Assembly: GCA_014843695.1 (NCBI GenBank)
Contig: CM026398.1
Span: forward strand, 11,665,584 to 11,729,583
DNA from: Archivesica marissinica
Taxonomy: Eukaryota; Mollusca; Bivalvia; Venerida; Vesicomyidae
Direction: 5' to 3'
Length of the DNA stretch: 64,000 bases
Shown: positions 26,926-56,828 of the stretch, one piece after another
How the letters are laid out: each line of letters starts with the position of its first letter
How positions within the stretch are numbered: position 1 is the stretch's first letter
Made by a program: the position numbers and the translations under genes
The notes under the pieces: generated by a model
Seen by the model: only the letters and a program-made list of their open reading frames with translations
Told to the model about the DNA's origin: nothing
The model's database searches: none

Positions 26926-27004
26926 GTAAGTATGGTGTGCAAGTTATTTGTTTATACTGTAGAATGACGCCCCTGTCCCTGTTATACATAGTAACGTTGT
27001 CAGA

Positions 27005-27334
27005 TTGGAGATCTCTGTACCTATAGATATATTGCCAGGATCTCAGATATGACATGGAATATTATGTATTTCAGATCTCTGTACCCATAGATATATTGCC
27101 AGGATCTCAGATATGACATGGAATATTATGTATTTCAGATCTCTGTACCCATAGATATATTGCCAGGATATCATATATGACACAGAATGTTATGTATTTC
27201 AGATCTCTGTCGCCATAGATATATTGTCAGGATATCATATATGACACAGAATGTTATGTATTTCAGATCTCTGCCGCTCGCCATAGATATATTGCCAGGA
27301 TATCAGATATGACACAGAATGTTATGTATTTCAG
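27005..27334 (+). repeat. ~64-bp repeat built from acceptor + 5' edge of DOCK exon 6
   Basis: Five tandem copies of GTATTTCAG plus ATCTCTGTACCCATAGATAT and following bases lie directly before the real exon; the first copy lacks the AG. Each pseudo-edge reads ISVPIDI then LPG, like the exon, but diverges after GGATCTCA and reaches an in-frame TGA. None has a donor. They are non-functional but splice-competent-looking acceptors. Confidence 0.93.
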
Positions 27335-27398
27335 ATCTCTGTACCCATCGATATATTCCCAGGATCTCATCTTTGTTTTGAGATTTTCCATTGCTCTG
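27335..27398 (+). CDS. DOCK: DOCK exon 6 of window (DHR-1, PID-x-GSHL strand)
   Basis: The acceptor is gtatttcag and the donor gtaagt. It reads ISVPIDIFPGSHLCFEIFHC then S, leaving 1 nt. This is the DOCK 'IPIDRFRGSHLRFEFRHCS' segment. Phase 0 in and phase 1 out fit both neighbours. Both ends are duplicated in the flanking intron: five decayed copies of the acceptor plus first ~40 nt lie upstream, and one copy of the last ~17 nt plus donor lies downstream. The copy at 27335 is the only one that keeps the GSHL coding and joins to a donor, so it is taken as the real exon. Confidence 0.93.
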
Positions 27399-27455
27399 GT
27401 AAGTAAACCAATTCTTAGATTTTCCATTGCTCTGGTAAGTAAACCAATTCTTAGA
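27381..27455 (+). repeat. 36-bp duplication of exon 6 3' edge + donor
   Basis: AGATTTTCCATTGCTCTG, then gtaagtaaaccaattctt, occurs twice in tandem (27381 and 27417), followed by a third partial copy (AGATTTTC). The first contains the true exon end at 27398; the second is a decoy donor at about 27435. Confidence 0.92.
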
Positions 27456-27613
27456 TTTTCACCTTCACAAAGTGTAGCTGCTGAAAAGAGGTCAAATTGA
27501 AAATTAGAGCTTGTACATCTGGTAGTTGGCTGCTTAACACAGATGACTGTTGACACTTGTTTGTTTGTAATGTTTACAAATCGGACCAATCAATATTAAT
27601 AAACACAACTGAA

Positions 27614-30133
27614 ACTGTCAGTCATTACATTCCCCTGTCAGTCATTACATTCCCCTGTCAGTCATTACATCTGCCTGTCAGTCATTACATCTGCCTGTCA
27701 GTCATTACATCCACCTGTCAGTCATTACATCTGACTGTCAGTCATTACATCCGCTTGTCAGTCATTACATCCGCCTGTCAGTCATTACATTCCCCTGTCA
27801 GTCATTACATCTGCATGTCAGTCATTGCATCTGCCTGTCAGTCATTATATTCCCCTGTCAGTCATTACATTCCCCTGTCAGTCATTACATCTGACTGTCA
27901 GTCATTACATCCGCTTGTCAGTCATTACATCCGCCTGTCAGTCATTACATTCCCCTGTCAGTCATTACATCTGCATGTCAGTCATTGCATCTGCCTGTCA
28001 GTCATTATATTCCCCTGTCAGTCATTACATTCCCCTGTCAGTCATTACATCTGACTGTCAGTCATTACATCCGCTTGTCAGTCATTACATCCGCCTGTCA
28101 GTCATTACATCTGACTATCAGTCATTACATTCCCCTGTCAGTCATTACATTCCCCTGTCAGTCATTACATCCGACTGTCAGTCATTACATCCGCCTGTCA
28201 GTCATTACATCTGACTATCAGTCATTACATTCCCCTGTCAGTCATTACATTCCCCTGTCAGTCATTACATCCGACTGTCAGTCATTACATCCGCCTGTCA
28301 ATCATTACATCTGACTGTCAGTCATTACATTCCCCTGTCAGTCATTACATCTGACTGTCAGTCATTACATCCACCTGTCAGTCATTACATCTGACTGTCA
28401 GTCATTACATTCCCCTGTCAGTCATTACATCCGACTGTCAGTCATTACATCCGCCTGTCAGTCATTACATTCCCCTGTCAGTCATTACATCTGCCTGTAA
28501 GTCATTACATCTGCCTGTCAGTCAGTACATCCACCTGTCAGTCATTACATTCCCCTGTCAGTCATTACATCTGCCTGTCAGTCATTACATTCACCTGTCA
28601 GTCATTACATCCACCTGTCAGTCATTACATCCGCCTGTCAGTCATTACATTCCCCTGTCAGTCATTACATCTGCCTGTCAGTCATTACATTCCCCTGTCA
28701 GTCATTACATCCGCCTGTCAGTCATTACATCCACCTGTCAGTCATTACATTCCCCTGTCAGTCATTACATCTGCCTGTCAGTCATTACATTACCCTGTCA
28801 GTCATTACATCTGACTGTCAGTCATTACATTCCCCTGTCAGTCATTACATCTGCCTGTCAGTCATTGCATCCGCCTGTCAGTCATTACATCTGCCTGTCA
28901 GTCATTACATTCCCTGTCAGTCATTACATCTGCCTGTCAGTCATTACATTCCCCTGTCAGTCATTACATCTGCCTGTCAGTCATTACATTCCCCTGTCAG
29001 TCATTACATCCACCTGTCGGTCATTACATCTGACTGTCAGTCATTACATTCCCCTGTCAGTCATTACATCCGACTGTCAGTCATTACATCCGCCTGTCAG
29101 TCATTACATTCCCCTGTCAGTCATTACATCTGCCTGTAAGTCATTACATCTGCCTGTCAGTCAGTACATCCACCTGTCAGTCATTACATTCCCCTGTCAG
29201 TCATTACATCTGCCTGTCAGTCATTACATTCCCCTGTCAGTCATTACATCCACCTGTCAGTCATTACATCCGCCTGTCAGTCATTACATTCCCCTGTCAG
29301 TCATTACATCTGCCTGTCAGTCATTACATTCCCCTGTCAGTCATTACATCTGCCTGTCAGTCATTACATTCCCCTGTCAGTCATTACATCTGCCTGTCAG
29401 TCATTACATTCCCCTGTCAGTCATTACATCTGACTCAGTCATTACATTCCCCTGTCAGTCATTACATCTGCCTGTCAGTCATTACATCCGCCTGTCAGTC
29501 ATTACATACACCTGTCAGTCATTACATCTGCATGTCAATCATTACATCCACATGTCAGTCATTACATCTGCCTGTCAGTCATTACACCCGCCTGTCAGTC
29601 ATTACATCCGCCTGTCAATCATTACATCCACATGTCAGTCATTACATCTGCCTGTCAGTCATTACATCCGCTTGTCAGTCATTACATCTGCCTGTCAGTC
29701 ATTACATCTGCTTGTCAGTCATTACATCTGCCTGTCAGTCATTATATCTGCCTGTCAGTCATTACACCCGCCTGTCAGTCATTACATCTGCCTGTCAATC
29801 ATTACATCCGCCTGTCAGTCATTACATCCGTCTGTCAGTCATTACATCCGCCTGTCAGTCATTACATCTGCCTGTCAATCATTACATCCACATGTCAGTC
29901 ATTACATCTGCCTGTCAGTCATTAGATCTGCCTGTCAGTCATTACATCCACCTGTCAATCATTACATCCGCCTGTCAGTCATTACATCCGCCTGTCAGTC
30001 ATTACATCTGCCTGTCAATCATTACATCCACATGTCAGTCATTACATCTGCCTGTCAGTCATTACATCTGCCTGTCAGTCATTACATCCGCCTGTCAGTC
30101 ATTACATTCCCATGTCAGTCATTACATCCGCTA
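27614..30133. repeat. 20-bp minisatellite, 2.5 kb
   Basis: Unit: CTGTCAGTCATTACATCYGC; about 126 copies with variant tails (TTCCC, CTGAC, CCACC, CTGCA). An 8-unit, 160-bp higher-order repeat is visible (27741-27900 equals 27901-28060 unit by unit). The 437-residue frame is an artefact: 20-bp periodicity without stops. Confidence 0.98.
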
Positions 30134-30251
30134 AGATGCTTACGTTTGTGTCTCGGTGTTCACCAGAATTACGTATAAAATTATGGACGGATTTTGGTGG
30201 ATGGGTGGGCTTTGTGTCAAAGACTAATCAATTAGATATTGGAGTGTGTGT

Positions 30252-30433
30252 TTTACATTTATTTATCGTCGCTACCGGTTACCTATATAAGCGACGCCTC
30301 TTGAAGAGATTAATCATTTTAGATTTTTGGAGGATAGTGCAATGATACAGACACCATTCCAGAGTCTCCTCTGGTTCTTTTATGTACACAGTGTAAAGCA
30401 CCGACACGAGACCTCAGTTTAAAGTCCCATCTC
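30252..30433 (-). mobile_element. 5'-truncated SINE, reverse copy of the 6288 family
   Basis: Reverse complement of the body and tail of the SINE at 6288-6568 (shared blocks TTTATTTATCGTCGCTACCG, GGTTCTTTTATGTACA, GTGTAAAGCACCGACACGAG). The tRNA-like head is missing and is replaced by the CCCCTCAGCTGCTGC repeat. A 77-residue open frame over it is not a gene. Confidence 0.85.
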
Positions 30434-30439
30434 CCACTC

Positions 30440-30535
30440 CAGCCCCTCAGCTGCTGCTATTTGAGCCCCCCCGCCCCTCAGCTGCTGCTATTTGAGATCC
30501 CCCGCCCCTCAGCTGCTGCTATTTGAGTCTGCCCC
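30440..30535. repeat. ~30-bp repeat, 3 copies, C-rich
   Basis: CCCCTCAGCTGCTGCTATTT then GAG occurs three times with CCC-rich spacers. It sits where the truncated SINE lost its head. Confidence 0.9.
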
Positions 30536-30645
30536 TCCCCTGGGTAACCTAGAGTAGCTGATGAAATCAAAGTTAGTCTGTCGTTACCCATATATCTCGT
30601 ATTTCATTTAAATTGTTCACTAATGCAGGCCATGCTTACTTTCAG

Positions 30646-30758
30646 TATCAAACTTGAACAAGGAAGTGAGATGTCCATACGGATTTGCGTTTGTACGAGT
30701 AACCAACGAGGCACAGATTGTAATCAATGATAATGTGCACAAGCTCTGTGTTTATAAG
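30646..30758 (+). CDS. DOCK: DOCK exon 7 of window (DHR-1, FAF strand)
   Basis: The acceptor is ctttcag and the donor gtaagt. G from exon 6 plus TA gives Val. It then reads SNLNKEVRCPYGFAFVRVTN and EAQIVINDNVHKLCVYK. This matches the DOCK 'STKDKGEKKLFGFAF--LM--DG-TL-D--HEL-VYK' region, although the lysine-rich loop is shorter in basic residues here. It ends in phase 0 after VYK. The 3' edge (last ~13 nt) with its donor is repeated twice more immediately downstream. Confidence 0.93.
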
Positions 30759-31445
30759 GTAAGTATTACAATATAGTGTATAGGTTGATATAACTGTGTT
30801 TATAAGGTAAGTATTACAATATAGTGTATCAGGTTGATATAACTGTGTTTATAAGGTAAGTATTACAATATAGTGTATCAGGTTGATATAACTGTAGGTA
30901 TTTCAGAGTAGAGACAATGTAATGTATCAGGTTGATATAACTGTAGGTATTTCAGAGTAGAGACAATGTAATGTATCAGGTTGATATAGCTGTAGGTATT
31001 TCAGAGTAGAGACAATGTAGTGTATAGGTTGATAGAGCTGTAGGTATTTTAGGGTAGAGACAATATAGTGTATCAGGTTGATATAACTGTAGGTATTTTA
31101 GGGTAGAGACAATATAGTGTATAGGTTGATATAACTGTAGGTATTTTAGGGTAGAGACAATATAGTGTATAGGTTGATATAACTGTAGGTATTTCAGAGT
31201 AGAGACAATGTAATGTATCAGGTTGATATAACTGTAGGTATTTCAGAGTAGAGACAATGTAGTGTATAGGTTGATATAACTGTAGATATTTCAGAGTAGA
31301 GACAATGTAATGTAGCAGGTTGATATAACTGTAGATATTTCAGAGTAGAGACAATGTAATGTAGCAGGTTGATATAACATAAGATATTTCAGAGTATAGA
31401 CAATGTAATGTAGCAGGTTGATATAACTGTTGGTATTTCAGAGTA
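30746..31445 (+). repeat. ~48-bp array starting from exon 7 3' edge + donor
   Basis: The true exon end (TGTGTTTATAAG|gtaagt) and the next ~35 bp of intron recur at about 30787 and 30835, giving three donors in a row. Further copies (AGGTTGATATAACTGTAGGT, ATTTCAGAGTAGAGACAATG) have replaced the exon part by GTAGGTATTTCAGAGTAGAG; about 14 units in all. The later form carries an acceptor-like ATTTCAG. Confidence 0.9.
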
Positions 31446-31468
31446 ATGTATCGGTTGCATATGGAGTG

Positions 31469-31708
31469 TTAGGCCATAATAAAATAAATCCTAGATTTTC
31501 ATCCAAATTTTTCTGGGGGTGAAATTTTATTTTTTATTTGATATTTTCAGGATATCGATATTTATGCTGATAAAATGGTGTTTTGACAAGATTCAACTTG
31601 ACAAGATTTTTTTTTTTTTTCCAAATAGTAATAAAAAAAATCGGGGCGGGCCCTAAAAACGGGGGCGGGCGGGGATGAAAATCTAGGAAATATTTTATTA
31701 TGGCCTTA
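31469..31708. mobile_element. Harbinger-like MITE with long terminal inverted repeats
   Basis: 31472-31705 begins GGCCATAATAAAATAAATCC then TAGATTTTCATCC, and ends GGATGAAAATCTA then GGAAATATTTTATTATGGCC; about 33 bp of near-perfect inverted repeat. It is flanked by TTA on each side (3-bp duplication), which fits PIF/Harbinger. Non-coding; it carries T- and G/C-rich runs inside. Confidence 0.82.
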
Positions 31709-32302
31709 TGATTAAAAATAATATGAACTAGTCAATTGAAATCCAATCCCATGCTGCGTTATTAATTGTTTGCTATTATCGTTCACTGTATACAGTCAAA
31801 CCTGTGTTAAGCAGAGAGCCAAGGGAATCACAGAAACTGGCTGCTTAGCACATATTGTTTCTTAATAGAGCTCAATATATACCGTATATTCTCGGCCACA
31901 AGTCAACCTTTTTCTTGTCCAGAAATGCGATGAACGTTCAAGGTCGACTTATGCATAAGAAACAAGCAAACAAATAATTTTGAAAAAATAAGTTAAATTT
32001 TTTTTTATTTGTTGGAACTTTATTTATGTCTGTTTTATTAGATTTATAACAATTTGCTTAGACAAATATGTACATTATAAACCATAGAAAAGCTGATAAA
32101 CTCACTTCATATATCGTTGTTGTGCATCAGCATAATTTCTATGATTTGTAATGGAATAAAGTAAACCAGATATCTCAAATTGAGCTCAGTTTCATTCAAA
32201 AATGAGATACAAACAATTGTCGTAACGAATGTCATACTGGTAAGTTCACAAAGTATCCTCGACTTATAGAAGAATCCAGCTTAAAATTAGCATTTTCAAC
32301 CC

Positions 32303-32722
32303 TCGACTTGTGGCCGAGAACGACTTGTGGCCGAGAACGACTTGTGGCCGAGAACGACTTATGGCCGAGAACGACTTGTGGCCGAGAACGACTTATGGCC
32401 GAGAACGACTTGTGGCCGAGAACGACTTATGGCCGAGAACGACTTGTGGCCGAGAACGACTTGTGGCCGAGAACGACTTATGGCCGAGAACAACTTATGG
32501 CCGAGAACGACTTGTGGCCGAGAACGACTTATGGCCGAGAACGACTTGTGGCCGAGAACGACTTATGGCCGAGAACGACTTGTGGCCGAGAACGACTTGT
32601 GGCCGAGAACGACTTATGGCCGAGAACGACTTGTGGCCGAGAACGACTTGTGGCCGAGAACGACTTGTGGCCGAGAACGACTTATGGCCGAGAACGACTT
32701 ATGGCCGAGAACGACTTGTGGC
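32303..32722. repeat. 17-bp minisatellite grown from a nested MITE terminus
   Basis: Unit CGACTTGTGGCCGAGAA, about 25 copies (TTATGG variant). It is the inverted complement of the TTCTCGGCCACAAGTC that opens the nested element at 31888, so the array is an amplified terminal repeat. Frames of 142-245 residues here are artefacts. Confidence 0.95.
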
Positions 32723-32763
32723 CAGGAATATATGGTAATAAAACAACATATATGGAATCTGGA

Positions 32764-32960
32764 AACTGGCTGCTTCAATACAGGTTGGCTGCTTCAAGGT
32801 TGGCTGCTTCAATACAGGTTGGCTGCTTCAATACAGGTTGGCTGCTTCAATACAGGTTGGCTGCTTCAATACAGGTTGGCTGCTTCAATACAGGTTGGCT
32901 GCTTCAATACAGGTTGGCTGCTTCAATACAGGTTGGCTGCTTCAATACAGGTTGGCTGCT
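32764..32960. repeat. 20-bp minisatellite in the same MITE
   Basis: Unit GGTTGGCTGCTTCAATACAG, about 10 copies, nearly identical. It matches the subterminal GGTTGGCTGCTTAATACAG motif found only about twice in the compact copy at 21448. Confidence 0.95.
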
Positions 32961-33101
32961 TAATAGAGGTTTGACTGTATTTGTTGTATTGGTGCTTGTA
33001 AATGAACCATTTGTGGGTTTATATGCAAATAAAACTTCTTCATAATCAGTAAATTACCGTAATTGTTCTCCAAAATGTTTTGTCTTATCATGTTTCTACA
33101 G

Positions 33102-33315
33102 ATGGATGAGAAGCATCGAGTGGATAAGCAACGATTTTTCAAGCTTCCGTTCTTACTGGATGATCACAATGACCCTCGACAAACACCACACATTCCAAGC
33201 AAACCACACATTCCAAGCAAACCAAACGTTCCAAGCAAACCTCTGTTGAAGCCCAATGAGCGCGACTCTCTCACCATCACTACACTGCTGTGTTCAGGAA
33301 AGTTTACACAGACTG
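33102..33315 (+). CDS. DOCK: DOCK exon 8 of window (end of DHR-1; in-frame 18-bp repeat)
   Basis: The acceptor is gtttctacag and the donor gtaagt. It starts MDEKHRVDKQRFFKLPF, matching the DOCK segment that ends in 'YL-LP', and finishes DSLTITTLLCSGKFTQTG, matching 'ESFFISTQLSSTKLTQN'. Between them is an unusual linker with three in-frame 6-residue repeats (HIPSKP, HIPSKP, NVPSKP; 18-bp DNA unit, about 33191-33242). The opening ATG is internal, not a start codon: phase 0 joins it to exon 7. It ends with 1 nt over. Its last ~48 nt plus donor are repeated 6-7 more times in the intron. Confidence 0.94.
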
Positions 33316-33785
33316 GTAAGTTTCACCTCTCACCATCACTACACTGCTGTGTTCAGGAAAGTTTACACAGACTGGTAAGTTTCACCTCTCACCATCACTA
33401 CACTGCTGTGTTCAGGAAAGTTTACACAGACTGGTAAGTTTCACCTCTCACCATCACTACACTGCTGTGTTCAGGAAAGTTTACACAGACTGGTAAGTTT
33501 CACCTCTCACCATCACTACACTGCTGTGTTCAGGAAAGTTTACACAGACTGGTAAGTTTCACCTCTTACCATCACTACACTGCTGTGTTCAGGAAAGTTT
33601 ACACAGACTGGTAAGTTTCACCTCTTACCATCACTACACTGCTGTGTTCAGGAAAGTTTACATAGACTGGTAAGTTTCACCTCTCTCACCATCACTACAG
33701 TGCTATGTTCAGGTAAGTTTACACAGGCTGGTACGTTTCACCTCTTACCATCACTACACTGCTGTGTTCAGGAAAGTTTCTACAG
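33268..33785 (+). repeat. 59-bp array of exon 8 3' edge + donor
   Basis: Unit: CTCTCACCATCACTACACTG, CTGTGTTCAGGAAAGTTTAC, ACAGACTG, then gtaagtttcac; about 8 copies plus a partial. The first contains the true exon end (33315). Six more keep ACTGgtaagt exactly, one is GCTGgtacgt, and the last is broken. Downstream copies are nearly identical to the exon, so the expansion is young or being homogenised. Confidence 0.96.
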
Positions 33786-33794
33786 TCTGTTATT

Positions 33795-34085
33795 TTCTAT
33801 TATATGGTTTAATATTTTTCCAACTATTTGCCACAGAATCTGAGTATTTCAACTAATAAAACAAGTGTCGTATACGACATTTATTGACATAGCAATAATA
33901 CTGTAATCGGAGCCAACATCCATGCATGAAACAATGCGTGTATCCTGAACAATATTTATGGTACACATTTACCGTTATATCTCACAATCTAATTTGATTT
34001 ATATTAGTTATGGACGACAGTATCACAAGTTTAGTATAGATTTTAATAATAAACAAACGTCAATTCATGAGTGAGGCTGACAGGG
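33795..34085 (-). mobile_element. interspersed repeat B (inverted partner of 20665-20975)
   Basis: Reverse-orientation copy of repeat A with blocks GCCAACATCCATGCATG, TACCGTTATATCTC and AGTATAGATTTTAATAATAAA. It starts directly after the exon 8-derived array and ends at the MITE-like element at 34086. Confidence 0.72.
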
Positions 34086-34916
34086 GATAGCTGTGTATAG
34101 TGCGCACATTCCTTACTGAAATCCTCATCCAATTTATCTACTGCGCATTATACACCAGTACAGACATCAGGACATTTTTTTCCGGACCAAAATTGACCAA
34201 TATTTCATGAAATTCGACCCAAACGGCCCCACAGTCATTCTATAATTTGTTACATTCGACAGACGTTATAAACTAGCTATTAAAACCAGTTGCCGATAGT
34301 CTATATAAATAAATGAAATGAATAAGACCACAACATTAGCATATATTGCGTTTATTTTGGCAAACTTTGAAGACTTTAATTGAAATTACTAAATGCATAA
34401 AAAATGGCGATTTGATAACATCACGTGGTTTTATCGTATGTAATATTTCCCGTACTTTTCGCGTACTTCGCCGCATAAAGCGACACAGTATTTCAATTGT
34501 TTGTAGCGATAATTAATTTCGACAAACCTTTCACAATGGGTCCCAGTTAATTAGGTAGGCTACACGTGTTGAGAAGTTTGAGCATCTGCTGACATGTTTG
34601 AGAACGTGTTGAGATGTTTGAGCAGGTGTTAAGTTTGAGAAATTAATTATCACTCAACTTGTCAATTAAATGCATGTAATTTTCATGAAATTATGGGTGC
34701 GTTACCATTCCTCGATGAGGTATCTCGAGTGATTAATATAAGTTGTAAAAATCACGGAGCACAATATTTAGCGATTCTTGATAAATGTTAAATTTTGACT
34801 TGGAAAATTGCGTTTTTCACGTGCGCAGTATACATCGGAACTCAGTTTTTCCGCCGATTTTCGTGCCAGATCGTGGGTGCGCACTATACACGGTAGCGCA
34901 CTATACATAGCTAAAT
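34086..34916. mobile_element. candidate MITE with TAGCTGTGTATAGTGCGC ends
   Basis: Left end at 34088: TAGCTGTGTATAGTGCGCAC. Right end, inverted: GTAGCGCACTATACATAGCTA (imperfect). An extra copy of the terminus (GTGCGCACTATACACGG) sits just inside the right end. Target duplication was not identified. A 63-residue frame inside has no recognised domain. Confidence 0.55.
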
Positions 34917-34971
34917 ACGGTACACCTTTGGTAACAAGAATTTTTGATAATTGTTACTATGAGATTTGGAA

Positions 34972-35001
34972 ATGCAGGGAGACAAGGTTGTCAAGGTAGC
35001 C
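34972..35001 (+). pseudogene. displaced copy of the exon 9 end + donor
   Basis: ATGCAGGGAGACAAGGTTGT then CAAGgtagcc matches the last 21 nt of DOCK exon 9 and its donor (one A/G change) but lies 145 bp upstream of the exon with no acceptor of its own. It looks like the remnant of a duplication that spanned exon 9, or a seed of the kind that expanded at other exons. Confidence 0.88.
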
Positions 35002-35116
35002 CGTGTTATGTATTTTATATTTGAAAGGAAAATTAATCAAAATTTGATATACGATTAAATGTTTTGTTTTTTAAAATGTACACTTCATTAGAATTTGATT
35101 TCATGTTTGTATTCAG

Positions 35117-35220
35117 GTGATTTACTTGGTATTCTGAACTGGAAAGGTGAACAATTTAAGGACAAGCTTGGGGAAAGTCTAGACAAACTGCGTATAATGC
35201 AGGGAGACGAGGTTGTCAAG
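35117..35220 (+). CDS. DOCK: DOCK exon 9 of window
   Basis: The acceptor is gtattcag and the donor gtagca. After completing Gly it reads DLLGILNWKGEQFKDKLGES then LDKLRIMQGDEVVK. This is the DOCK 'DLLGLLKW ... LRQLMKVDGGEVVK' block that follows DHR-1. It ends in phase 0 before the FLHD exon, as in the family. A displaced copy of its last ~21 nt and donor lies 145 bp upstream at 34972-35001. The following 9.3-kb intron is almost wholly a 31-bp array. Confidence 0.96.
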
Positions 35221-35249
35221 GTAGCACTTTTTCTGTGATTTTTTTTAAC

Positions 35250-38200
35250 CATGCACATTCTCAACTAATCCAGTGTGAACCATAAACATGATCAGCTAAT
35301 CCATGGTAAACCATAAACATGATCAGCTAATCCATGGTAAGCCATACACATGATCAGCTAATCCATGGTGATACATAAACATGATCCGCTAATCCATGGT
35401 GAACCATGAACCTGATCAGCTAATACATGGCGAACAATAATCATGATCAGCTAATCCATGGTAAACCATAAACATGATCAGCTAATCCATGGTAAACCAT
35501 AAACATGCTCAGCAACTCCAGTGTGAACCATAAACATACTCAGCTAATCCAGTGTGAACCATAAACATGATCAGCTAATCCACAGTGAACCATAAACATG
35601 GCCAGCTAATCCATGGTGAACCATAAACATGCTCAGCTAATCCAGTGTGAACCATAAACATGATCAGCTAATCCACAGTGAACCATAAACATGGCCAGCT
35701 AATCCATGGTGAACCATAAACATGCTCAGCTAATATATGGTGAACCATAAACATGCTCAGCTAATACATGGTAAACCATAAACATGCTCAGCTAATCCAG
35801 TGTGAACCATAAACATGATCAGCTAATCCACAGTGAACCATAAACATGGCCAGCTAATCCATGGTGAACCATAAACATGATCAGCTAATACATTGTGAAC
35901 CATAAACATGCTCAGCTAATCCATGTTGAACCATAAACATGATCAGCTAATCCAATGTGAACCATGAACCTGATCAGCTAATCCATGTTGAACCATAAAC
36001 ATGATCAGCTAATCCACAGTGAACCATAAACATGATCAGCTAATCCACAGTGAACCATAAACATGGCCAGCTAATCCATGGTGAACCATACACATGATCA
36101 GCTAATACATTGTGAACCATAAACATGCTCAGCTAATCCATGGTGACCCATAAACATGCTCAGCTAATACATGGTGAACCATAAACATGCTCAGCTAATC
36201 CATGGTGAACCATAAACATGCTCAGCTAATCCATGGTGACCCATAAACATGCTCAGCTAATCCATGGTGAACCATAAACATGCTCAGCTAATACATGGTG
36301 AACCATAAACATGATCAGCTAATACATTGTGAACCATAAACATACTCAGCTAATCCATGGTGAACCATAAACATGCTCAGCTAATCCATGGTGACCCATA
36401 AACATGCTCAGCTAATACATGGTGAACCATACACATGCTCAGCTAATCCACAGTGAACCATAAACATGATCAGTTAATCCAGTGTGAACTATAAACATGA
36501 TCCGCTAATACATGGTGAACCATAAACATGCTCAGCTAATCCATGGTGACCCATAAACATGCTCAGCTAATCCAATGTGAACCATAAACATGCTCAGCTA
36601 ATACATGGTGAACCATAAACATGATCAGCTAATACATTGTGAACCATAAACATACTCAGCTAATCCATGGTGAACCATAAACATGCTCAGCTAATCCATG
36701 GTGACCCATAAACATGCTCAGCTAATACATGGTGAACCATAAACATGCTCAGCTAATCCACAGTGAACCATAAACATGATCAGTTAATCCAGTGTGAACT
36801 ATAAACATGATCCGCTAATACATGGTGAACCATAAACATGCTCAGCTAATCCATTGTGACCCATAAACATGCTCAGCTAATCCATGGTGACCCATAAACA
36901 TGCTCAGCTAATCCATGGTGAACCATAAACATGATCAGTTAATACATTGTGAACCATACACATGCTCAGCTAATCCATGGTGACCCATAAACATGCTCAG
37001 CTAATCCATGGTGAACCATAAACATGATCAGTTAATACGTTGTGAACCATAAACATGCTCAGCTAATCCATGGTGACCCATAAACATGCTCAGCTAATCC
37101 ATGGTGATCCATAAACATGCTCAGCTAATACATGGTGAACCATAAACATGATCCAGTTAATCCATGGTAAACCATAAACATGCTCAGCTAATCCATAGTG
37201 AACCATAAACATGATCAGTTAATCCAGTGTGAACTATCAACATGATCCGCTAATACATGGTGAACCATAAACATGATCAGCTAATCCAGTGTGAACCATA
37301 AACATGATCAGCTAATCCATGGTGAACCATACACATTCTCAACTAATCCACAGTGAACCATAAACATGATCAACTAATCCACAGTGAACCATAAACATGA
37401 TCAGCTAATCCACAGTGAACCATAAACATGATCAGCTAATCCACAGTGAACCATAAACATGATCAGCTAATCCACAGTGAACCATAAACATGATCCAGTT
37501 AATCCACAGTGAACCATAAACATGGCCAGCTAATCCACAGTGAACCATAAACATGATCAGCTAATCCAGTGTGAACCATAAACATGGCCAGCTAATCCAT
37601 GGTGAACCATGAACATGACCAGCTAATCCAGTGTGAACCATAAACATGCTCAGCTAATCCATGGTGAACCATAAACATGCTCAGCTAATCCATGGTGACC
37701 CATAAACATGCTCAGCTAATACATGGTGAACCATAAACATGCTCAGCTAATACATGGTGAACCATAAACATGATCCAGTTAATCCACAGTGAACCATAAA
37801 CATGCTCAGCTAATCCACAGTGAACCATAAACATGATCAGTTAATCCAGTGTGAACTATAAACATGATCTGCTAATACATGGTGAACCATAAACATGCTC
37901 AGCTAATCCATGGTGACCCATAAACATGCTCAGCTAATACATGGTGAACCATAAACATGATCAGCTAATCCATGGTGAACCATAAACATGCTCAGCTAAT
38001 ACATGGTGAACCATAAACATGACCAGTTAATACATTGTGAACCATAAACATGCTCACCTAATCCATGGTGACCCATAAACATGCTCAGCTAATACATGGT
38101 GAACCATAAACATGCTCAGCTAATACATGGTGAACCATAAACATGATCCAGTTAATCCACAGTGAACCATAAACATGATCCAGTTAATCCACAGTGAATC

Positions 38201-46085: not shown

Positions 46086-46137
46086 AATGAATACCCAAGT
46101 AAAATTGTTCAATCCATCTTAAGAAACAAAGACTACT

Positions 46138-46345: not shown

Positions 46346-46394
46346 AACATGATTTCATGGAACTACTGACAGATTACATATTTGTTTCTTGTAT

Positions 46395-48556: not shown

Positions 48557-48559
48557 CAG

Positions 48560-48660
48560 ATCAATTTATTTACACTGATACACCATGTCAGGTTTGAGAC
48601 GTTCAAGCCCGTGTTGGAAAACTACATCACAGACACATTCTCAGCTACGCTTGTACATAA
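48560..48660 (+). CDS. DOCK: DOCK exon 11 of window
   Basis: The acceptor is gtatatatttcag and the donor gtatgt. It reads INLFTLIHHVRFETFKPVLE then NYITDTFSATLVH and leaves 2 nt (AA). It aligns with DOCK '[31 protein letters not shown]', so identity is firm. The pyrimidine tract is the last unit of a 2.2-kb TGTATATATTTG-type array, so the acceptor context is made of repeat. Leftover AA plus the G opening exon 12 gives Lys. Confidence 0.95.
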
Positions 48661-48770
48661 GTATGTTAAACATTCATCATTTTGAAACAGAAATGTCCCC
48701 ACTTGCCAAATACTGAAAGTAATCTCACATATATTGTTACTGAGTGTATATTGATGATGTTTCATTTGTT

Positions 48771-49631
48771 TCAGGCCCATGTGTGCTTATTTTGCTGACA
48801 TACTGTTTCTTTAGTGACAGGCCCCTGTGTGCTTATTTTCTGACATACTGTTTCTTTAGTGACAGGCCCCTGTGTGCTTATTTTGCTGACATACTGTTTC
48901 TTTAGTGACAGGCCCCTGTGTGCTTATTTTGCTGACATACTGTTTCTTTAGTGACAGGCCCCTGTGTGCTTATTTTGCTGACATACTGTTTCTTTAGTGA
49001 CAGGCCCCTGTGTGCTTATTTTGCTGACATACTGTTTCTTTAGTGACAGGCCCCTGTGTGCTTATTTTGCTGACATACTGTTTCTTTAGTGACAGGCCCC
49101 TGTGTGCTTATTTTGCTGACATACTGTTTCTTTAGTGACAGGCCCCTGTATGCTTATTTTGCTGACATACTGTTTCTTTAGTGACAGGCCCCTGTGTGCT
49201 TATTTTGCTGACATACTGTTTCTTTAGTGACAGGCCCCTGTGTGCTTCATTTAATAACATTCAGCTTATCTTGTTGCATACCCCTGTGTGCTTGTGTTAC
49301 TGATATACTGTTTCTTTAGTTACTTGTCCCTGTGCATTTCTATAGGTGACATACTATTTATTTTGTTACAGACCCCTGTGTACTTGTGTTATTGACATAC
49401 TGTTTATTTTGTTACAGGCCCCTGTGTGCATGCATTTTTGGCACATTGTTTCATTTCAAGTGCTTGTTTCGCTGACATACCGTTTCTTTAATTACAGGCC
49501 CCTGTGTGCGTCATTTACTGACATTCAGCTTATCTTGTTACAGACCCCTGTGTAATTGTTTTACTGACAGTGTATTTTGTTGTAGGGCCCTGTGTGCCTG
49601 TTTTTCTGATGTGTAACTTGTTTTGTTACAG
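48771..49631 (+). repeat. ~46-bp array of acceptor + 5' edge of exon 12
   Basis: Unit: TTTCTTTAGTGACAG then GCCCCTGTGTGCTTATTTTG and CTGACATACTG. About 18 copies precede the real exon (acceptor at 49631). The first ~11 are nearly identical and the rest diverge (GTTACAGACCCC, TTGTAGGGCCC). Each edge reads PLCAYFADIL in frame against PLCACFANMI in the real exon, then meets a TAG in the next unit. Confidence 0.95.
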
Positions 49632-49728
49632 GCCCCTGTGTGCTTGTTTTGCTAATATGATTGACTTGGCATGTAAACAGGAGCATAAAACAAATATGCC
49701 AAATGTGCATCTCATCCAGAGCTTCCAG
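49632..49728 (+). CDS. DOCK: DOCK exon 12 of window
   Basis: The acceptor is tttgttacag and the donor gtactg. After one codon-completing base it reads PLCACFANMIDLACKQEHKT then NMPNVHLIQSFQ. It falls where DOCK proteins have 'L-K-LK-YVD------QE--YKAMKALE'; similarity is modest. Phase 2 in and phase 0 out fit, and the next exon continues with the conserved YIFRFIVQS. Its 5' edge plus acceptor is the unit of the ~0.86-kb array directly upstream, so there are about 18 decoy acceptors before it. Confidence 0.85.
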
Positions 49729-49739
49729 GTACTGTATCA

Positions 49740-50085
49740 ATATTGGGACGTTATATATTACTTTTTAAAAGCGGCATATAATCTCAGCAAGTAAAAAATA
49801 AAATGTTCAACTATAAATATTTACATCACTATTGTGTGTCCTGTTTGTATCCATTTTCGTATGATATGAATTTCCTCGCTAATGATATGCAGCTGACATG
49901 CGCACTCAAAGTTACCTTCATGCGCTTTCGCAATGTTGGGCAGCGTTCCTCGCAAGAAAATGTGCGTCTTAGAATTTACATTGTCTGGACTAATTCGGGA
50001 CTAAATACGTTTTAAATGTGAAGTGTGCTATATGTTTCTTTGCATCATTTAAAAGAATAATTGATGTAAATATAAGTAATGAATA
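49740..50085. other. unique intron, no gene seen
   Basis: No repeat recognised. A 70-residue open frame (49803-50015) has no recognisable domain and no splice support. Confidence 0.5.
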
Positions 50086-50264
50086 GCGGGTTAATAGTTT
50101 CCATCAGGGTGTGAACTACATTGGATGTGTTTAAAGTTAACATGGAGGCACCACACACTTTAACCACACACAGTGTAGTTAATACTCGACGGAAACTATG
50201 GCATCCTGGCTAACTTTAAACAAGCCCTATGTAGTTCATACCCCGATGGAAACAATTAACCCGC
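50086..50264. mobile_element. palindromic MITE (179 bp)
   Basis: The left arm GCGGGTTAATAGTTTCCATC, AGGGTGTGAACTACAT, ...GTTTAAAGTTA is mirrored by TAACTTTAAAC..., ATGTAGTTCATACCCCGATG, GAAACAATTAACCCGC. About 50 bp arms with a 70-bp centre. No coding capacity. Confidence 0.78.
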
Positions 50265-51494
50265 GAAACATGGCCTATGTAGTTATACCCTGATGGAAAC
50301 TATTAACCCACGAAACATGGCCTATGTAGTTATACCCTGATGGAAACTATTAACCCACGAAACATGGCCTATGTAGTTATACCCTGATGGAAACTATTAA
50401 CCCACGAAACATGGCCTATGTAGTTATACCCTGATGGAAACTATTAACCCACGAAACATGGCCTATGTAGTTATACCCTGATGGAAACTATTAACCCGTG
50501 AAACATGGCCTATGTAGTTATACCCTGATGGAAACTATTAACCCACGAAACATGCCCTATGTAGTTATACCCTGATGGAAACTATTAACCCACGAAACAT
50601 GGCCTATGTAGTTATACCCTGATGGAAACTATTAACCCGTGAAACATGGCCTATGTAGTTATACCCTGATGGAAACTATTAACCCACGAAACATGCCCTA
50701 TGTAGTTATACCCTGATGGAAACTATTAACCCACGAAACATGGCCTATGTAGTTATACCCTGATGGAAACTATTAACCCGTGAAACATGGCCTATGTAGT
50801 TATACCCTGATGGAAACTATTAACCCACGAAACATGGCCTATGTAGTTATACCCTGATGGAAACTATTAACCCGTGAAACATGGCCTATGTAGTTATACC
50901 CTGATGGAAACAATTAACCCACGAAACATGGCCTATGTAGTTATACCCTGATGGAAACTATTAACCCGCGAAACACGCCCTATGTAGTTCATACCCAGAT
51001 GGAAACTATTAACCCATGAAACAGGCCCTATGTAGTTCATACCCCGATGGAAACTATTAACCCATGAAACAGGCCCTATGTAGTTCATACCCAGATGGAA
51101 ACTATTAACCCGCGAAACACGCCCTATGTAGTTCATACCCCGATGGAAACTATTAACCCATGAAACACGCCCTATGTAGTTCATACCCAGATGGAAACTA
51201 TTAACCCGCGAAACATGGCCTATGTAGTTCATACCCCGATGGAAACTATTAACTTAAATTAACCAGCCCTATATAGTTCATACCCTGATGGAAACTATTA
51301 ACCCATGAAACAGGCCCTATGTAGTTCATACCCAGATGGAAACTATTAACCCGCGAAACATGGCCTATGTAGTTATACCCTGATGGAAACTATTAACCCG
51401 CGAAACACGCCCTATGTAGTTCATACCCCGATGGAAACTATCAACCCGCGAAACACGCCCTGTGTAGTTCATACCCCAATTGAAACTATTGACC
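50227..51494. repeat. 47-bp minisatellite grown from the MITE arm
   Basis: Unit: CTATGTAGTTATACCCTGAT, GGAAACTATTAACCCACGAA, ACATGGC; about 26 copies. The unit is the right arm of the palindromic MITE at 50086-50264 plus a short spacer. The distal end (from about 50980) returns to the MITE-like TTCATACCCCGATGG form. Confidence 0.93.
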
Positions 51495-51619
51495 CACGAT
51501 TCATCCTTAAATATCATTACTACTACATATTCTTTCAACATAATTTCATGTTGCATGCAAAAATACAACTGTTGTTATTCATGCATTATTAATAATGAAA
51601 TACATCTAAGACGGTGTTC

Positions 51620-51855
51620 TCCGTTGGCAAGTTGTAATGGTCGTTGACTTCAAATCACTCGTCCTTCACCACGGTTGGATTGAATCACACTGGGGGTGTC
51701 AATTTCTTTCGTGTTAGGAAGCTATCCAGCTGGCTTTCTGAAGGTCGGTGGTTCTACCCAGGTGCCCATCCATGTCTGAAATACTGCTCGAAGATGCACC
51801 CAGGATCTTCCTCCACCAATAATAGCTGGAGAGTAGTCTAACTTAATCTGACAGT
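51620..51855 (+). mobile_element. interspersed repeat shared with 10845-11065
   Basis: Related to 10845-11065 through GTTAGGAAGCTATCCAGCTG, GAAGGTCGGTGGTTCTACCC, AGGTGCC and ATCTTCCTCCACCA; same orientation. Class uncertain. An overlapping 65-residue frame is not a gene. Confidence 0.6.
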
Positions 51856-52068
51856 GCGACTTTAAACCCCAAATCAAAACCAAAATATCTAAGACATCAG
51901 AAATATATTTTTAATAGTTAACATCTATCGATAAACCTTTCAGATTGTCTTAGTAGCAGTAGCATACATTAACCCATTATACTGGTAATTGAATTGACAT
52001 TTAAAAAATGATTGTAAAAGATTCACTATGTACTTGATGTGTAGTGATGGTAACGTTATGTCTTCCAG

Positions 52069-52124
52069 GTTATGGACTATATTTTCCGATTTATTGTCCA
52101 GTCAAGTTTGCTGCAGAGAAAGGA
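52069..52124 (+). CDS. DOCK: DOCK exon 13 of window (small)
   Basis: The acceptor is tgtcttccag and the donor gtaagt. It reads VMDYIFRFIVQSSLLQRK and leaves GA. This matches the strongly conserved DOCK block 'ALEYIFKFIVRSRILF'. At 56 nt it is too small for ORF callers but is unmistakable. GA plus the T opening exon 14 gives Asp. A 28-bp repeat array begins about 60 bp after the donor. Confidence 0.94.
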
Positions 52125-52151
52125 GTAAGTATTTATGTTATCTCCACATAC

Positions 52152-53690
52152 ATATACATCAAGATTAGAGAGCCTAGGGAATGGTTGAGTGTTACATATA
52201 CATAGAGATTGGTTGAGTGTTACATCTATGGTACATGGAGAATGGTTGAGTGTTACATCTACATGGAGTTTGGTTGAGTGTTACATCTACATAGAGATTG
52301 GTTGAGTGTTACATCTACATAGAGATTGGTTGAGTGTTACATCTACATAGAGATTGGTTGAGTGTTACATCTACATGGATATTGGTTGAGTGTTACATCT
52401 ACATGGAGATTGGTTGAGTGTTACATCTACATGGAGATTGGTTGAGTGTTACATCTACATGGAGATTGGTTGAGTGTTACATCTACATAGAGCTTGGTTG
52501 AGTGTTACATCTACATGGAGAATGGTTGAGTGTTACATCTACATGGAGAATGGTTGCATGTTACATCTACATATAGATTGGTTGAGTGTTACACATGGAG
52601 ATTGGTTGAGTGGTACATAGAGATTGGTTGAGTGTTACATCTACATAGAGATTGGTTGAGTGTTACATCGCATCTACATAGAGATTGGTTGAGTGTTACA
52701 TCTACATGGAGATTGGTTGAGTGTTGCATCTACATGGAGATTGGTTGAGTGTTAATCTACATGGAGATTGGTTGAGTGTTACATCTACATAGAGATTGGT
52801 TGAGTGTTACATCTACATGGAGATTGGTTGAGTGTTACATCTACATGGAGAATGGTTGAGTGTTACATCTACATAGAGATTGGTTGAGTGTTACATCTAC
52901 ATGGAGATTGGTTGAGTGTTACATCTACATGGAGATTGGTTGAGTGTTACATCTACATATATATTGGTTGAGTGTTACATTTATACGGAGAATGGTTGAG
53001 TGTTACATCTACATGGAGATTGGTTGATTGTTACATCTACATAGAGATTGGTTGAGTGTTACATCTACATAGAGATTGGTTGAGTGTTACATCTATGGTA
53101 CATAGAGAATGGTTGAGTGTTACATCTATGGTACATAGAGATTGGTTGAGTGTTACATCTACATAGAGATTGGTTGAGTGTTACATCTATGGTACATAGA
53201 GATTGGTTGAGTGTTACATCTCGGTACATAGAGATTGGTTGAGTGTTACATCTACATAGAGATTGGTTGAGTGTTACATCTATGGTACATAGAGATTGGT
53301 TGAGTGTTACATCTACATAGAGATTGGTTGAGTGTTACATCTACATAGAGATTGGTTGAGTGTTACATCTACGGTACATAGAGATTGGTTGAGTGTTACA
53401 TCTCGGTACATAGAGATTGGTTGAGTGTTACATCTACATAGAGATTGGTTGAGTGTTACATCTACATAGAGATTGGTTGAGTGTTACATCTGGTACATAG
53501 AGATTGGTTGAGTGTTACATCTACATAGAGATTGGTTGAGTGTTACATCTACATAGAGATTGGTTGAGTGTTACATCTACGGTACATAGAGATTGGTTGA
53601 GTGTTACATCTACATAGAGATTGGTTGAGTGTTACATCTACATAGAGATTGGTTGAGTGTTACATCTACGGTACATAGAGATTGGTTGTA
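52152..53690. repeat. 28-bp minisatellite, 1.5 kb
   Basis: Unit: GAGATTGGTTGAGTGTTACA then TCTACATA; about 54 copies. A longer form with GGTACATA inserts recurs in a regular order in the second half (53.08-53.68 kb), indicating a higher-order repeat of about three units. It ends 45 bp before exon 14. Confidence 0.96.
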
Positions 53691-53734
53691 TATACATACC
53701 TGTATATATTATACCATATATTTGTTTTCTATAG

Positions 53735-53849
53735 TGTGTTCAGTCGAGGTTCCGGTGATGCCAATGAGTTCTGGGACAATATACATAGAGTGTTCATAAG
53801 TATGGGTGAGCTACTGGCGTCTACTACCGACAACATCAAAGCATATCAA
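53735..53849 (+). CDS. DOCK: DOCK exon 14 of window
   Basis: The acceptor is gttttctatag and the donor gtaagt. After one base it reads VFSRGSGDANEFWDNIHRVF then ISMGELLASTTDNIKAYQ. It corresponds to DOCK 'LYSRATCGMEEEQFRSSIQELFQSIRFVLS', with the acidic residue then F-x(3)-I motif kept. It is phase 0 out. A longer open frame from 53682 reads through repeat before the acceptor and past the donor and is not used. Confidence 0.9.
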
Positions 53850-53969
53850 GTAAGTTCTCATCATATGTTTGGCAGTTTCAGTCGATTTCTTTTGCTTAAA
53901 CCCTGTGTGGTTTTCGAGGTGACAAGATAGTTTAGAATTGGAACCACTTTTTTGCCCTTGCAATATCAT

Positions 53970-55408
53970 AAGAGGTCAGTGACTTAAGATTGTAAGAGTT
54001 CAGTGACTTAAGATCGTAAGAGGTCAGTGACTTAAGATCATAAGAGGTCAGTGACTTAAGCTCATAAGAGGTCAGTGACTTAAGATCGTAAGAGGTCAGT
54101 GACTTAAGATCGTAAGAGGTCAGTGACTTAAGATCGTAAGAGGTCAGTGACTTAAGCTCATAAGAGGTCAGTGACTTAAGATCGTAAGAGGTCAGTGACT
54201 TAAGATCGTAAGAGGTCAGTGACTTAAGATCGTAAGAGGTCAGTGACTTAAGATCGTAAGAGGTCAGTGACTTAAGATCATAAGAGGTCAATTACTTAAG
54301 ATCATAAGAGGTCAGTGACTTAAGATCATAAGAGGTCAGTGACTTAAGCTCATAAGAGGTCAGTGACTTAAGATCGTAAGAGGTCAGTGACTTAAGATCG
54401 TAAGAGGTCAGTGACTTAAGATCGTAAGAGGTCAGTGACTTAAGATCGTAAGAGGTCAGTGACTTAAGATCATAAGAGGTCAGTGACTTAAGATCATAAG
54501 AGGTCAATTACTTAAGATCATAAGAGGTCAGTGACTTAAGATCATAAGAGGTCAGTGACTTAAGATCATAAGAGGTCAGTTACTTAAGATCATAAGAGGT
54601 CAGTGACTTAAGATCATAAGAGGTCAGTGACTTAAGATCATAAGAGGTCAGTGACTTAAGATCATAAGAGGTCAGTGACTTAAGATCATAAGAGGTCAGT
54701 TACTTAAGATCATAAGAGGTCAGTGACTTAAGATCATATGAGGTCAGTGACTTAAGATCATAAGAGGTCAGTGACTTAGGCTCATAAGAGGTCAGTGACT
54801 TAAGATCATAAGAGGTCAGTGACTTAAGATCATAAGAGGTCAGTGACTTAAGATCATAAGAGGTCAGTGACTTAAGATCATAAGAGGTCAGTGACTTAAG
54901 ATCATAAGAGGTCAGTGACTTAAGATCATAAGAGGTCAGTGACTTAAGATCTTAAGAGGTCAGTGACTTAAGATCATAAGAGGTCAGTGACTTAAGATCG
55001 TAAGAGGTCAGTGACTTAAGATCATAAGAGGTCAGTGACTTAAGATCGTAAGAGGTCAGTGACTTAAGATGTGGGTGTGTTGTTGGGTGTGACTTAGATC
55101 GTAAGAGGTCAGTGACTTAAGATTTGTAAGAGGTCAGTGACTTAAGATCATAAGAGGTCAGTGACTTAAGATCATAAGAGGTCAGTGACTTAAGATCATA
55201 AGAGGTCAGTGACTTAAGATCGTAAGAGGTCAGTGACTTAAGATCATAAGATGTCAGTGACTTAAGATCATAAGAGGTCAGTGACTTAGATAGTAAGAGG
55301 TCAGTGACTTAAGATCATAAGAGGTCAGTGACTTAAGATCATAAGAGGTCAGTGACTTAAGATCGTAAGAGGTCAGTGACTTAAGATCATAAGAGTTCAG
55401 TGACTTAA
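53970..55408. repeat. 24-bp minisatellite with IR-1-like motifs, 1.44 kb
   Basis: Unit: AAGAGGTCAGTGACTTAAGA then TCRT; about 60 copies. Each holds AGGTCAGTGACTT, an inverted pair of nuclear-receptor half-sites with 1-bp spacing. Segments with TCGT and TCAT endings alternate. Interrupted at 55070-55095 by G/T-rich sequence. Minus-strand frames (TSYDLKSL) are artefacts of 24-bp periodicity. Confidence 0.97.
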
Positions 55409-55531
55409 GACCGTCGTAGGAGGTTTTCTCCTATCTCTGTAACAGTAAATTTTCGGACATTTTTTTCTTTTCTCCATATATAACTTTTCTCCATACAACA
55501 AACAATTGGGAGATATAATACCCATTCCATG

Positions 55532-56670
55532 TTTAGTTGAGAGGAGTCCGCTATGTGGCATCCACTGTTGGATAATGCTACATTTTGTAGTTGAGAGGAG
55601 CCCGCTATGTGGCATCCACTGTTGGATAAAGCTACATTTTGTAGTTGAGAGAAGCCCGCTATGTGGCAGCCACTGTTGGATAAAGCTACATTTTGTAGTT
55701 GAGAGGAGCCCGCTATGTGGCATCCACTGTTGGATAAAGCTACATTTTGTAGTTGAGAGGAGTCCGCTATGTGGCATCCACTGTTGGATAAAGCATGTAG
55801 TTGAGAGGAGTCCGCTATGTGGCATCCACTGTTGGATAAAGCATGTAGTTGAGAGGAGTCCGCTATGTGGCATCCACTGTTGGATAAAGCTACATTTTGT
55901 AGTTGAGAGGAGCCCGCTATGTGGCATCCACTGTTGGATAAAGCTACATTTTGTAGTTGAGAGGAGTCCGCTATGTGGCATCCACTGTTGGATAAAGCTA
56001 CATTTTGTAGTTGAGAGGAGCCCGCTATGTGGCATCCACTGTTGGATAAAGCTACATTTTGTAGTTGAGAGGAGGCCGCTATGTGGCATCCACTGTTGGA
56101 TAAAGCATCTATATTTTGTAGTTGAGAGGAGTCCGCTATGTGGCATCCACTGTTGGATAAAGCTACATTTTGTAGTTGAGAGGAGTCCGCTATGTGGCAT
56201 CCACTGTTGGATAAAGCTACATTTTGTAGTTGAGAGGAGCCCGCTATGTGGCATCCACTGTTAGATAAAGCTACATTTTGTAGTTGAGAGGAGCCCGCTA
56301 TGTGGCATCCACTGTTGGATAAAGCTACATTTTGTAGTTGAGAGGAGTCCGCTATGTGGCATCCACTGTTGGATAAAGCTACATTTTGTAGTTGAGAGGA
56401 GCCCGCTATGTGGCATCCACTGTTGGATAAAGCTACATTTTGTAGTTGAGAGGAGTCCGCTATGTGGCATCCACTGTTGGATAAAGCTACATTTTGTAGT
56501 TGAGAGGAGCCCGCTATGTGGCATCCACTGTTGGATAAAGCATCTACATTGTTTAGTTGAGAGGAGTCCGCTATGTGGCATCCACTGTTTGATAAAGCAT
56601 CTACATTGTTTAGTTGAGAGGAGCCCGCTATGTGGCAGCCACTGTTGGATAAAGCTACATTTTGTAATTC
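55532..56670. repeat. 54-bp minisatellite, 1.1 kb
   Basis: Unit: TTGAGAGGAGCCCGCTATGT, GGCATCCACTGTTGGATAAA, GCTACATTTTGTAG; about 21 copies, some short (AAAGCATGTAG). Because 54 is divisible by 3, frames of 252 (+) and 285 (-) residues stay open; judged artefacts. Confidence 0.96.
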
Positions 56671-56689
56671 TCAAGTGGCATTACCATGT

Positions 56690-56828
56690 CATTTCCTGTG
56701 ATGGAGGTATTACCTAATACATGGTTTACATTTCCACTTTCAGATAGCTCTGTTGAATCACCTCCATTGTGTTTACATTCCTCTGATGGATGTATTGCCT
56801 GATACATGATTTACATTTCCACTTTCAG
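56690..56828 (+). repeat. duplicated acceptor + 5' edge of exon 15
   Basis: A near-full copy of TTTACATTTCCACTTTCAG plus ATAGCTCTGTTG and ~50 more exon bases starts at 56744, 85 bp before the real exon. It ends in ACATGA (TGA in frame). A third, partial copy (GTGATGGAGGTATTACCT) lies at about 56698. The decoy changes GCTCAC to AATCAC and GAGGTA to GATGTA. Confidence 0.93.

What the first reader, a model, noticed from the sequence alone, without database searches (positions are those of the whole stretch)
27005..56828. Minisatellites seeded at exon-intron junctions of one gene, six exons over
At exons 6, 7, 8, 10, 12 and 15 the adjoining intronic repeat is made of the exon's own edge plus its functional splice site. 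Acceptor edges are copied upstream (exons 6, 12, 15) and donor edges downstream (exons 6, 7, 8, 10). Copies always keep the exon on its proper side, as local tandem duplication crossing the junction would do. Six of 16 exons is far beyond chance placement. It suggests either that new arrays start close to exons, or that arrays containing splice sites are favoured or tolerated, since a duplicated junction leaves a working site. I know of no named system for this.
Basis: partly seen in the sequence, partly recalled or inferred. Interest (0 to 1): 0.9.

Follow-up and report, generated by a model that had tools for sequence, protein, structure and literature searches.

The report
Exon edges copied into intron minisatellites
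In a gene of what is likely a clam, 7 of the 32 exon-intron borders in this stretch have their edge and splice signal copied head to tail into the neighbouring intron, most likely by chance tandem duplication of the kind that makes up two thirds of the surrounding DNA, because the count at 101 further borders comes out near random expectation.

Summary
The gene is DOCK3/4-like, likely from a venerid-type clam.

Tandem arrays cover 74% of the window and 66% of 264 kb, so a random point recurs far more often (about 61%) than a junction does (12 of 79). Against a fairer null (non-coding windows that recur on one side only) the window has 7 of 32 with 4.0 expected (P = 0.10). The rest of the gene (5 of 47) and six myosin genes elsewhere (3 of 54) give 8 of 101 with 6.5 expected. 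Array cover falls towards exons, and splice dinucleotides of copies are not specially conserved (P = 0.39). A TRF-based count leaves the window itself high (6 of 32 against 1.7 to 2.0).

Best reading: local tandem duplication strikes anywhere; selection removes what breaks an exon; junction-spanning duplications survive because one intact edge remains. Units bearing exon edges show arrays born in place, and form natural decoy-splice-site experiments.

The parts
27009..27369 (+). 64-bp array upstream of and across the acceptor of exon 6 (exon 27335-27398); 5 upstream copies, all 5 with AG
27381..27460 (+). 36-bp duplication across the donor of exon 6; 1 downstream copy with GT
30741..31445 (+). 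array across the donor of exon 7 (exon 30646-30758); 2 downstream copies of the exon edge with GT, then the 48/49-bp array that TRF reports from 30768
33268..33779 (+). 59-bp array across the donor of exon 8 (exon 33102-33315); each unit has the last ~48 nt of the exon; 8 downstream copies, 7 with GT
44628..45475 (+). 44- and 41-bp arrays across the donor of exon 10 (exon 44549-44638); 17 downstream copies, 16 with GT
48758..49650 (+). 46-bp arrays upstream of and across the acceptor of exon 12 (exon 49632-49728); 18 upstream copies, 16 with AG
56693..56889 (+). 85-bp duplication across the acceptor of exon 15 (exon 56829-57021); 1 upstream copy with AG
33185..33241 (+). in-frame 18-bp tandem repeat inside the coding part of exon 8; the aligned Ruditapes homologue lacks 12 residues here
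7334..58876 (+). 16 exons of a DOCK3/4-like gene: 7334-7406, 9018-9124, 10330-10455, 22858-23009, 26048-26146, 27335-27398, 30646-30758, 33102-33315, 35117-35220, 44549-44638, 48560-48660, 49632-49728, 52069-52124, 53735-53849, 56829-57021, 58749-58876
   Evidence: tblastn of P0001 with splice-site refinement; 7406, 49728, 53849 and 56829 set by hand

Best explanation
Intronic tandem arrays at 7 of 32 exon-intron junctions in the window carry copies of the exon edge with its splice site, and they most likely arose by ordinary local tandem duplication that happened to span the junction, in a region where tandem arrays make up two thirds of the DNA. Shown: arrays are abundant, most have a unit of their own, their cover drops within about 100 nt of exons, and outside the window junctions are caught in array edges about as often as other non-coding windows. 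Inferred: short tandem duplications arise at any place and then grow or shrink. Those that disturb an exon are removed by selection; those spanning a junction survive because the copy next to the exon body is a complete, working edge. The extra splice sites are probably ignored because exon definition picks the site that gives the short exon. The window probably looked special because it was picked for showing several such cases.
For: Array cover 74% of the window and 66% of 264 kb; 7 to 89% in eight 10-kb stretches at seven myosin loci on C3, C4, C5, C14 and C18. One-sided recurrence: window 7 of 32, 4.0 expected; rest of gene 5 of 47, about 3.4 expected; six myosin genes 3 of 54, 3.1 expected; the last two together 8 of 101, 6.5 expected, P = 0.32. 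TRF cover 19% and 15% in the first 10 nt from exons, 48% and 50% at 50-100 nt, 65 to 73% beyond 200 nt. 110 of 161 array units match no other array in the 264 kb. Splice dinucleotides of copies are not significantly better conserved than other columns (nine arrays, P = 0.39). First-copy offsets are multiples of three in 4 of 15 cases.
Against: Whole gene 12 of 79 against 6.5 expected, P = 0.025; at the loosest setting all junctions give 18 of 133 against 11.2, P = 0.032; TRF-based counts give gene P = 0.024 and 0.028 at two of four settings and keep the window high, 6 of 32 against 1.7 to 2.0; a mixed-detector estimate gave 12 of 79 against 3.7, P = 0.0003. The nearest array is closer to a junction (median 94 nt upstream, 63 nt downstream) than to a random single-copy base (486 and 463 nt). 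The replication set is small and was picked by hand. Use of the copies in transcripts was not testable.
Confidence: 0.73

Rival explanations
1. New arrays start preferentially at or near exon-intron junctions, for example through transcription- or splicing-linked breakage.
For: Window counts above expectation under TRF-based nulls; whole gene P = 0.025; arrays lie nearer to junctions than to random single-copy bases.
Against: TRF cover falls towards exons with no peak beside them; junctions outside the window at expectation, 8 of 101 against 6.5.
Confidence: 0.1
2. Arrays containing splice sites are favoured because extra donor or acceptor sites serve splicing, for instance as decoys, recruiting sites or alternative sites.
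For: Many copies keep intact GT or AG, e.g. 135 of 137 at 151765.
Against: No significant extra conservation of the dinucleotides against each array's own consensus; in one array (102117) the splice dinucleotide is among the most variable column pairs; no preference for offsets in multiples of three; no excess in the replication.
Confidence: 0.07
3. The copies, or most of them, are assembly artefacts.
For: Across a 1000-N gap at 70026-71025 (outside the window) the same stretch stands twice with 6 mismatches in 3358 aligned single-copy bases, yet 7 of 7 complete arrays differ in copy number, up to 11.3 against 82.6, so array lengths may be unreliable.
Against: The same seven arrays with the same units occur in both versions; copies differ from each other by point changes.
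Confidence: 0.05
4. A modest real excess exists in this gene or neighbourhood only, because its arrays are unusually dense or young, without any role of the junction itself.
For: The one-sided rate is higher in the window (12.3% and 12.8%) than over the 264 kb (8.3% and 8.2%).
Against: Using the window's own rate still leaves 7 against 4.0, which needs no extra cause (P = 0.10).
Confidence: 0.05

Closest known systems
Intronic minisatellites / VNTRs
   Same: Tandem units of tens of bases in introns, with units mostly particular to one place
   Different: Here some units contain a coding exon's edge together with its splice site, and arrays make up about two thirds of the DNA around the gene. 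I recall no named class for this; my searches listed none that I recognised
Intron gain by tandem genomic duplication (passages of PMC3443670; listing of PMC4974935)
   Same: Tandem duplication of gene sequence that leaves duplicated splice signals, with coding sequence able to stay unaltered
   Different: There an exonic segment with AGGT is duplicated and a new intron results; here the duplicated segment spans an exon-intron junction and lengthens an intron. Whether any intron here is new was not tested
Minisatellites linked to splicing (CeRep25B in C. elegans, passages of PMC4039745; ABCA7 intronic VNTR, listing of PMC5954066)
   Same: Intronic minisatellites in introns near exons, with a possible effect on splice choice
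   Different: In the CeRep25B passages seen, the repeat is a 24-base unit carrying regulatory motifs, with no mention of exon edges; for ABCA7 I saw only a listing. No effect on splicing is shown here

Membership tests
Minisatellite | Head-to-tail units of about 10 to 100 bp | tested here: met
   171 arrays in 264 kb, median unit 33 bp, 5th to 95th percentile 13 to 84 bp; the seven junction arrays have units of 36 to 85 bp
Minisatellite | Unit particular to one locus | tested here: met
   110 of 161 units match no other array in the 264 kb; of the other 51, 9 match an array more than 15 kb away that is not its counterpart across a gap. The rest of the genome was not searched for the units
Minisatellite (VNTR) | Copy number varies between alleles | tested here: inconclusive
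   7 of 7 complete arrays differ between two versions of one stretch across an assembly gap, but alleles cannot be told from assembly error
Intron gain by tandem genomic duplication | The intron is new and bounded by the two copies of an exonic segment | not tested
   Intron positions of relatives were not available; one candidate (26963-27010 beside exon 6) was dropped because the homologue places the preceding exon at 26048-26146
Tandem alternative splice sites | Both sites are used in transcripts | not testable with these tools
   No RNA data on hand
DOCK3/4-type gene | Exons collinear with a DOCK3/4-like protein over most of its length | tested here: met
   67% identity over the 500 residues searched to a Ruditapes DOCK4-like protein; exons collinear from residue 64 to 1905 of 2105; DOCK5, 1 and 2 chains match in the PDB. 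DOCK domains were scanned in the homologue, not in the gene itself; subtype rests on the names of the nearest relatives

The most novel reading that the evidence does not exclude
Junction-born minisatellites are a general feature of this tandem-saturated bivalve genome: roughly one exon junction in nine carries them (15 of 133 here), some with more than a hundred near-identical, intact decoy splice sites beside the real one, and the spliceosome still picks the true edge. They form a large natural experiment on how exon definition ignores exact decoys.
Probability: 0.4. Interest if true: 0.65.

Novelty: new variant of a known kind. Interest (0 to 1): 0.42.

Why it matters
A unit that contains part of an exon carries a label of origin, so these arrays show that at least some of the minisatellites filling such introns are born in place and not delivered by mobile elements. 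They also set up a clean test of splice-site choice: the exon ending at 151765 has 137 downstream copies of its donor edge, 135 with an intact GT. If transcripts still use only the first site, exon definition would have to be very strong; if not, the gene should make many aberrant transcripts. That the special placement at exons fades against a fair null and in a replication is a caution for reading repeats in tandem-rich genomes.

Tried and rejected
Plain shuffling as a null: with about two thirds of the DNA in arrays it makes junctions look depleted (12 of 79 against about 61%), which mainly shows that exons exclude arrays. A collapsed-sequence null gave P = 0.0003 for the gene and 0.008 for the window, but it mixed TRF unit lengths with the more sensitive 24-mer detector; the like-for-like TRF version gives gene P = 0.024 to 0.176. 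I first took 26963-27010 as an exon, with a possible intron born inside it; the homologue places the preceding exon at 26048-26146, so that idea was dropped. Selection for keeping GT/AG in copies looked strong (692 of 702 against 6410 of 7722) but was not significant against each array's own consensus. An earlier count gave 98.8% identity and 8 arrays for the stretch repeated across the gap; the checked figures are 6 mismatches in 3358 aligned single-copy bases and 7 complete arrays, the eighth being cut by the gap.

Dropped before counting: the second copy of exon 16 at 71026-71143; intronic exon copies among the protein matches; 7 of 86 exon ends in the DOCK list that could not be placed; 7 of 34 exon pairs (14 junctions) in the myosin loci, among them the only pair of L025. 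Some counted junctions have weak boundaries, for example GC donors at -40402 in the DOCK gene and at 5588 in the myosin VII locus. The donors 7406, 49728 and 53849 and the acceptor 56829 were set by hand; 56829 is one of the seven positives. The myosin stretches were picked by hand from 74 listed myosin-head matches for exon density, after I had seen that some matches lie in long open frames that hint at arrays; L028 and L029 were two of four wanted.

Literature: eight searches for such arrays or for tandem repeats in clams listed no paper that I recognised as describing arrays with exon edges; three of them had lists of hundreds of which I saw 15, and I read passages of two papers only.

Full report
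What the window is. The window lies at C13:11665584-11729583 of a 1.54-Gb assembly in 2808 contigs. The + strand carries part of a DOCK gene: DOCK5, DOCK1 and DOCK2 chains match in the PDB, and the closest protein is a DOCK4-like protein of the Manila clam Ruditapes philippinarum, 67% identical over the 500 residues searched, followed by DOCK3/4-like proteins of Mactra, Mya and Dreissena. Mapping that homologue on 264 kb (the window with 60 kb upstream and 140 kb downstream) gives a collinear series of about 43 exons, 16 of them in the window. In the whole genome the 22 scored matches of the homologue (of 151 first-look candidates) all lie in this gene on C13.

At 7 of 32 junctions in the window the sequence spanning the junction recurs in the adjoining intron: acceptors of exons 6, 12 and 15, donors of exons 6, 7, 8 and 10. 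The clearest is exon 8, whose last ~48 nt and donor recur eight times in 59-bp units; the protein search found the eight intronic copies too. Outside the window the same holds at 5 of 47 junctions: -38745, 100673, 102117, 104551 and 151765 in window-relative coordinates. The last has 137 copies of a 31-bp unit containing the exon's last ~22 nt, with one base missing in most copies seen, and 135 have an intact GT.

Is it more than chance? Tandem arrays cover 74% of the window and 66% of the 264 kb. Random points recur on a given side in about 61% of cases, random points outside TRF arrays in 0.3 to 0.4%, so neither is a fair yardstick. The fairer question is how often a non-coding window that does not recur on one side recurs on the other, because an intact exon can have copies on its intron side only. 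That rate is 8.3% and 8.2% over the 264 kb and 12.3% and 12.8% in the window. Expected in the window: 4.0; observed: 7 (P = 0.10). Whole gene: 6.5 expected, 12 observed (P = 0.025). The window was picked because it shows the pattern, so the parts not picked matter most: the rest of the gene has 5 of 47, and six myosin genes on other chromosomes have 3 of 54. Together that is 8 of 101 against 6.5 expected (P = 0.32). Six settings of the detector gave replication P values from 0.10 to 0.72 and overall P values (133 junctions, window included) from 0.032 to 0.47. TRF-based counts at four settings agree for the replication: outside the window 2 to 4 of 47 against 1.8 to 2.9, myosins 2 to 3 of 54 against 1.8 to 2.7. 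They leave the window high, 3 to 6 of 32 against 1.2 to 2.0, and the gene at P = 0.024 to 0.176. A modest excess in the window therefore cannot be excluded.

Are arrays seeded at exons? TRF cover rises with distance from exons: 19% and 15% in the first 10 nt upstream of acceptors and downstream of donors, 48% and 50% at 50-100 nt, 59% and 61% at 100-200 nt, 65 to 73% beyond 200 nt. There is no peak beside exons. Against my reading, the next array is nearer to a junction (median 94 nt upstream, 63 nt downstream) than to a random single-copy base (486 and 463 nt). Random single-copy bases tend to lie in long islands, some of which are dispersed elements, so I do not take this as seeding, but I did not test it further.

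Are the copies kept for a use? At first sight the splice dinucleotides of copies match the exon's own far better than other columns (692 of 702 against 6410 of 7722). Two large arrays with fixed differences weigh heavily in that. Measured against each array's consensus, the difference is not significant (nine arrays, P = 0.39). First-copy offsets are multiples of three in 4 of 15 cases. I therefore find tolerance, not favour. Why more than a hundred decoy donors are harmless is inference: under exon definition the spliceosome would choose the site that gives the short exon, which is the exon's own site in every case here.

How arrays arise and change. Of 161 array units, 110 match no other array in the 264 kb; of the other 51, nine match a distant array that is not a counterpart across a gap, and the rest match a neighbour or a counterpart across an assembly gap. 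Together with the exon edges inside units this points to birth in place. Exon 8 also carries an in-frame 18-bp tandem repeat of its own where the Ruditapes homologue lacks 12 residues. Across a 1000-N gap at 70026-71025 the assembly repeats an 11 to 14 kb stretch, most of exon 16 included, with 6 mismatches in 3358 aligned single-copy bases, while 7 of 7 complete arrays differ in copy number (11.3/82.6, 16.4/34.6, 3.9/8.9, 25.1/39.4, 113.2/26.2, 11.4/18.4, 9.1/29.1). Either alleles differ strongly or array lengths are not assembled reliably. In both cases the presence and unit of these arrays repeat and their copy number does not.

Verdict. The claim that its frequency at exons needs a special cause is not supported by the replication. 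The case remains of interest as evidence of in-place birth of minisatellites and as a set of natural decoy-splice-site arrays.

Noticed in passing
58749-58876 and 71026-71143 (window-relative; the latter in L008): Exon 16 and the following 11-14 kb stand twice, on both sides of a 1000-N gap, nearly identical in single-copy DNA but with different array lengths: an unmerged overlap, two haplotypes or a recent duplication.
   Followed up: yes
46389-48556: A 2.1-kb low-complexity array (TTGTATATATTTGTATG) runs to within 4 nt of the acceptor of exon 11, so it seems to supply the sequence just upstream of that splice site.
   Followed up: no
6286-6577, 9162-9403, 25764-26008, 30244-30432, 57107-57348: Dispersed elements of about 190 to 290 bp that recur outside tandem arrays in the 264 kb.
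   Followed up: no
L022 903-1690; L028 near 7485: A myosin VII exon and a myosin V-like exon on other chromosomes also have donor-edge arrays; the latter has 115 copies, all with GT.
   Followed up: partly
G000:C5:40041121-40185263: Muscle-myosin-like exon matches repeat with equal scores at three places about 64 to 76 kb apart, which suggests recent tandem gene copies or an assembly repeat.
   Followed up: no
33185-33241: An 18-bp coding tandem repeat in exon 8 lengthens the protein in frame.
   Followed up: partly
L022-L029: TRF cover of eight 10-kb stretches at myosin loci ranges from 7% to 89%, so array density differs strongly between loci.
   Followed up: partly
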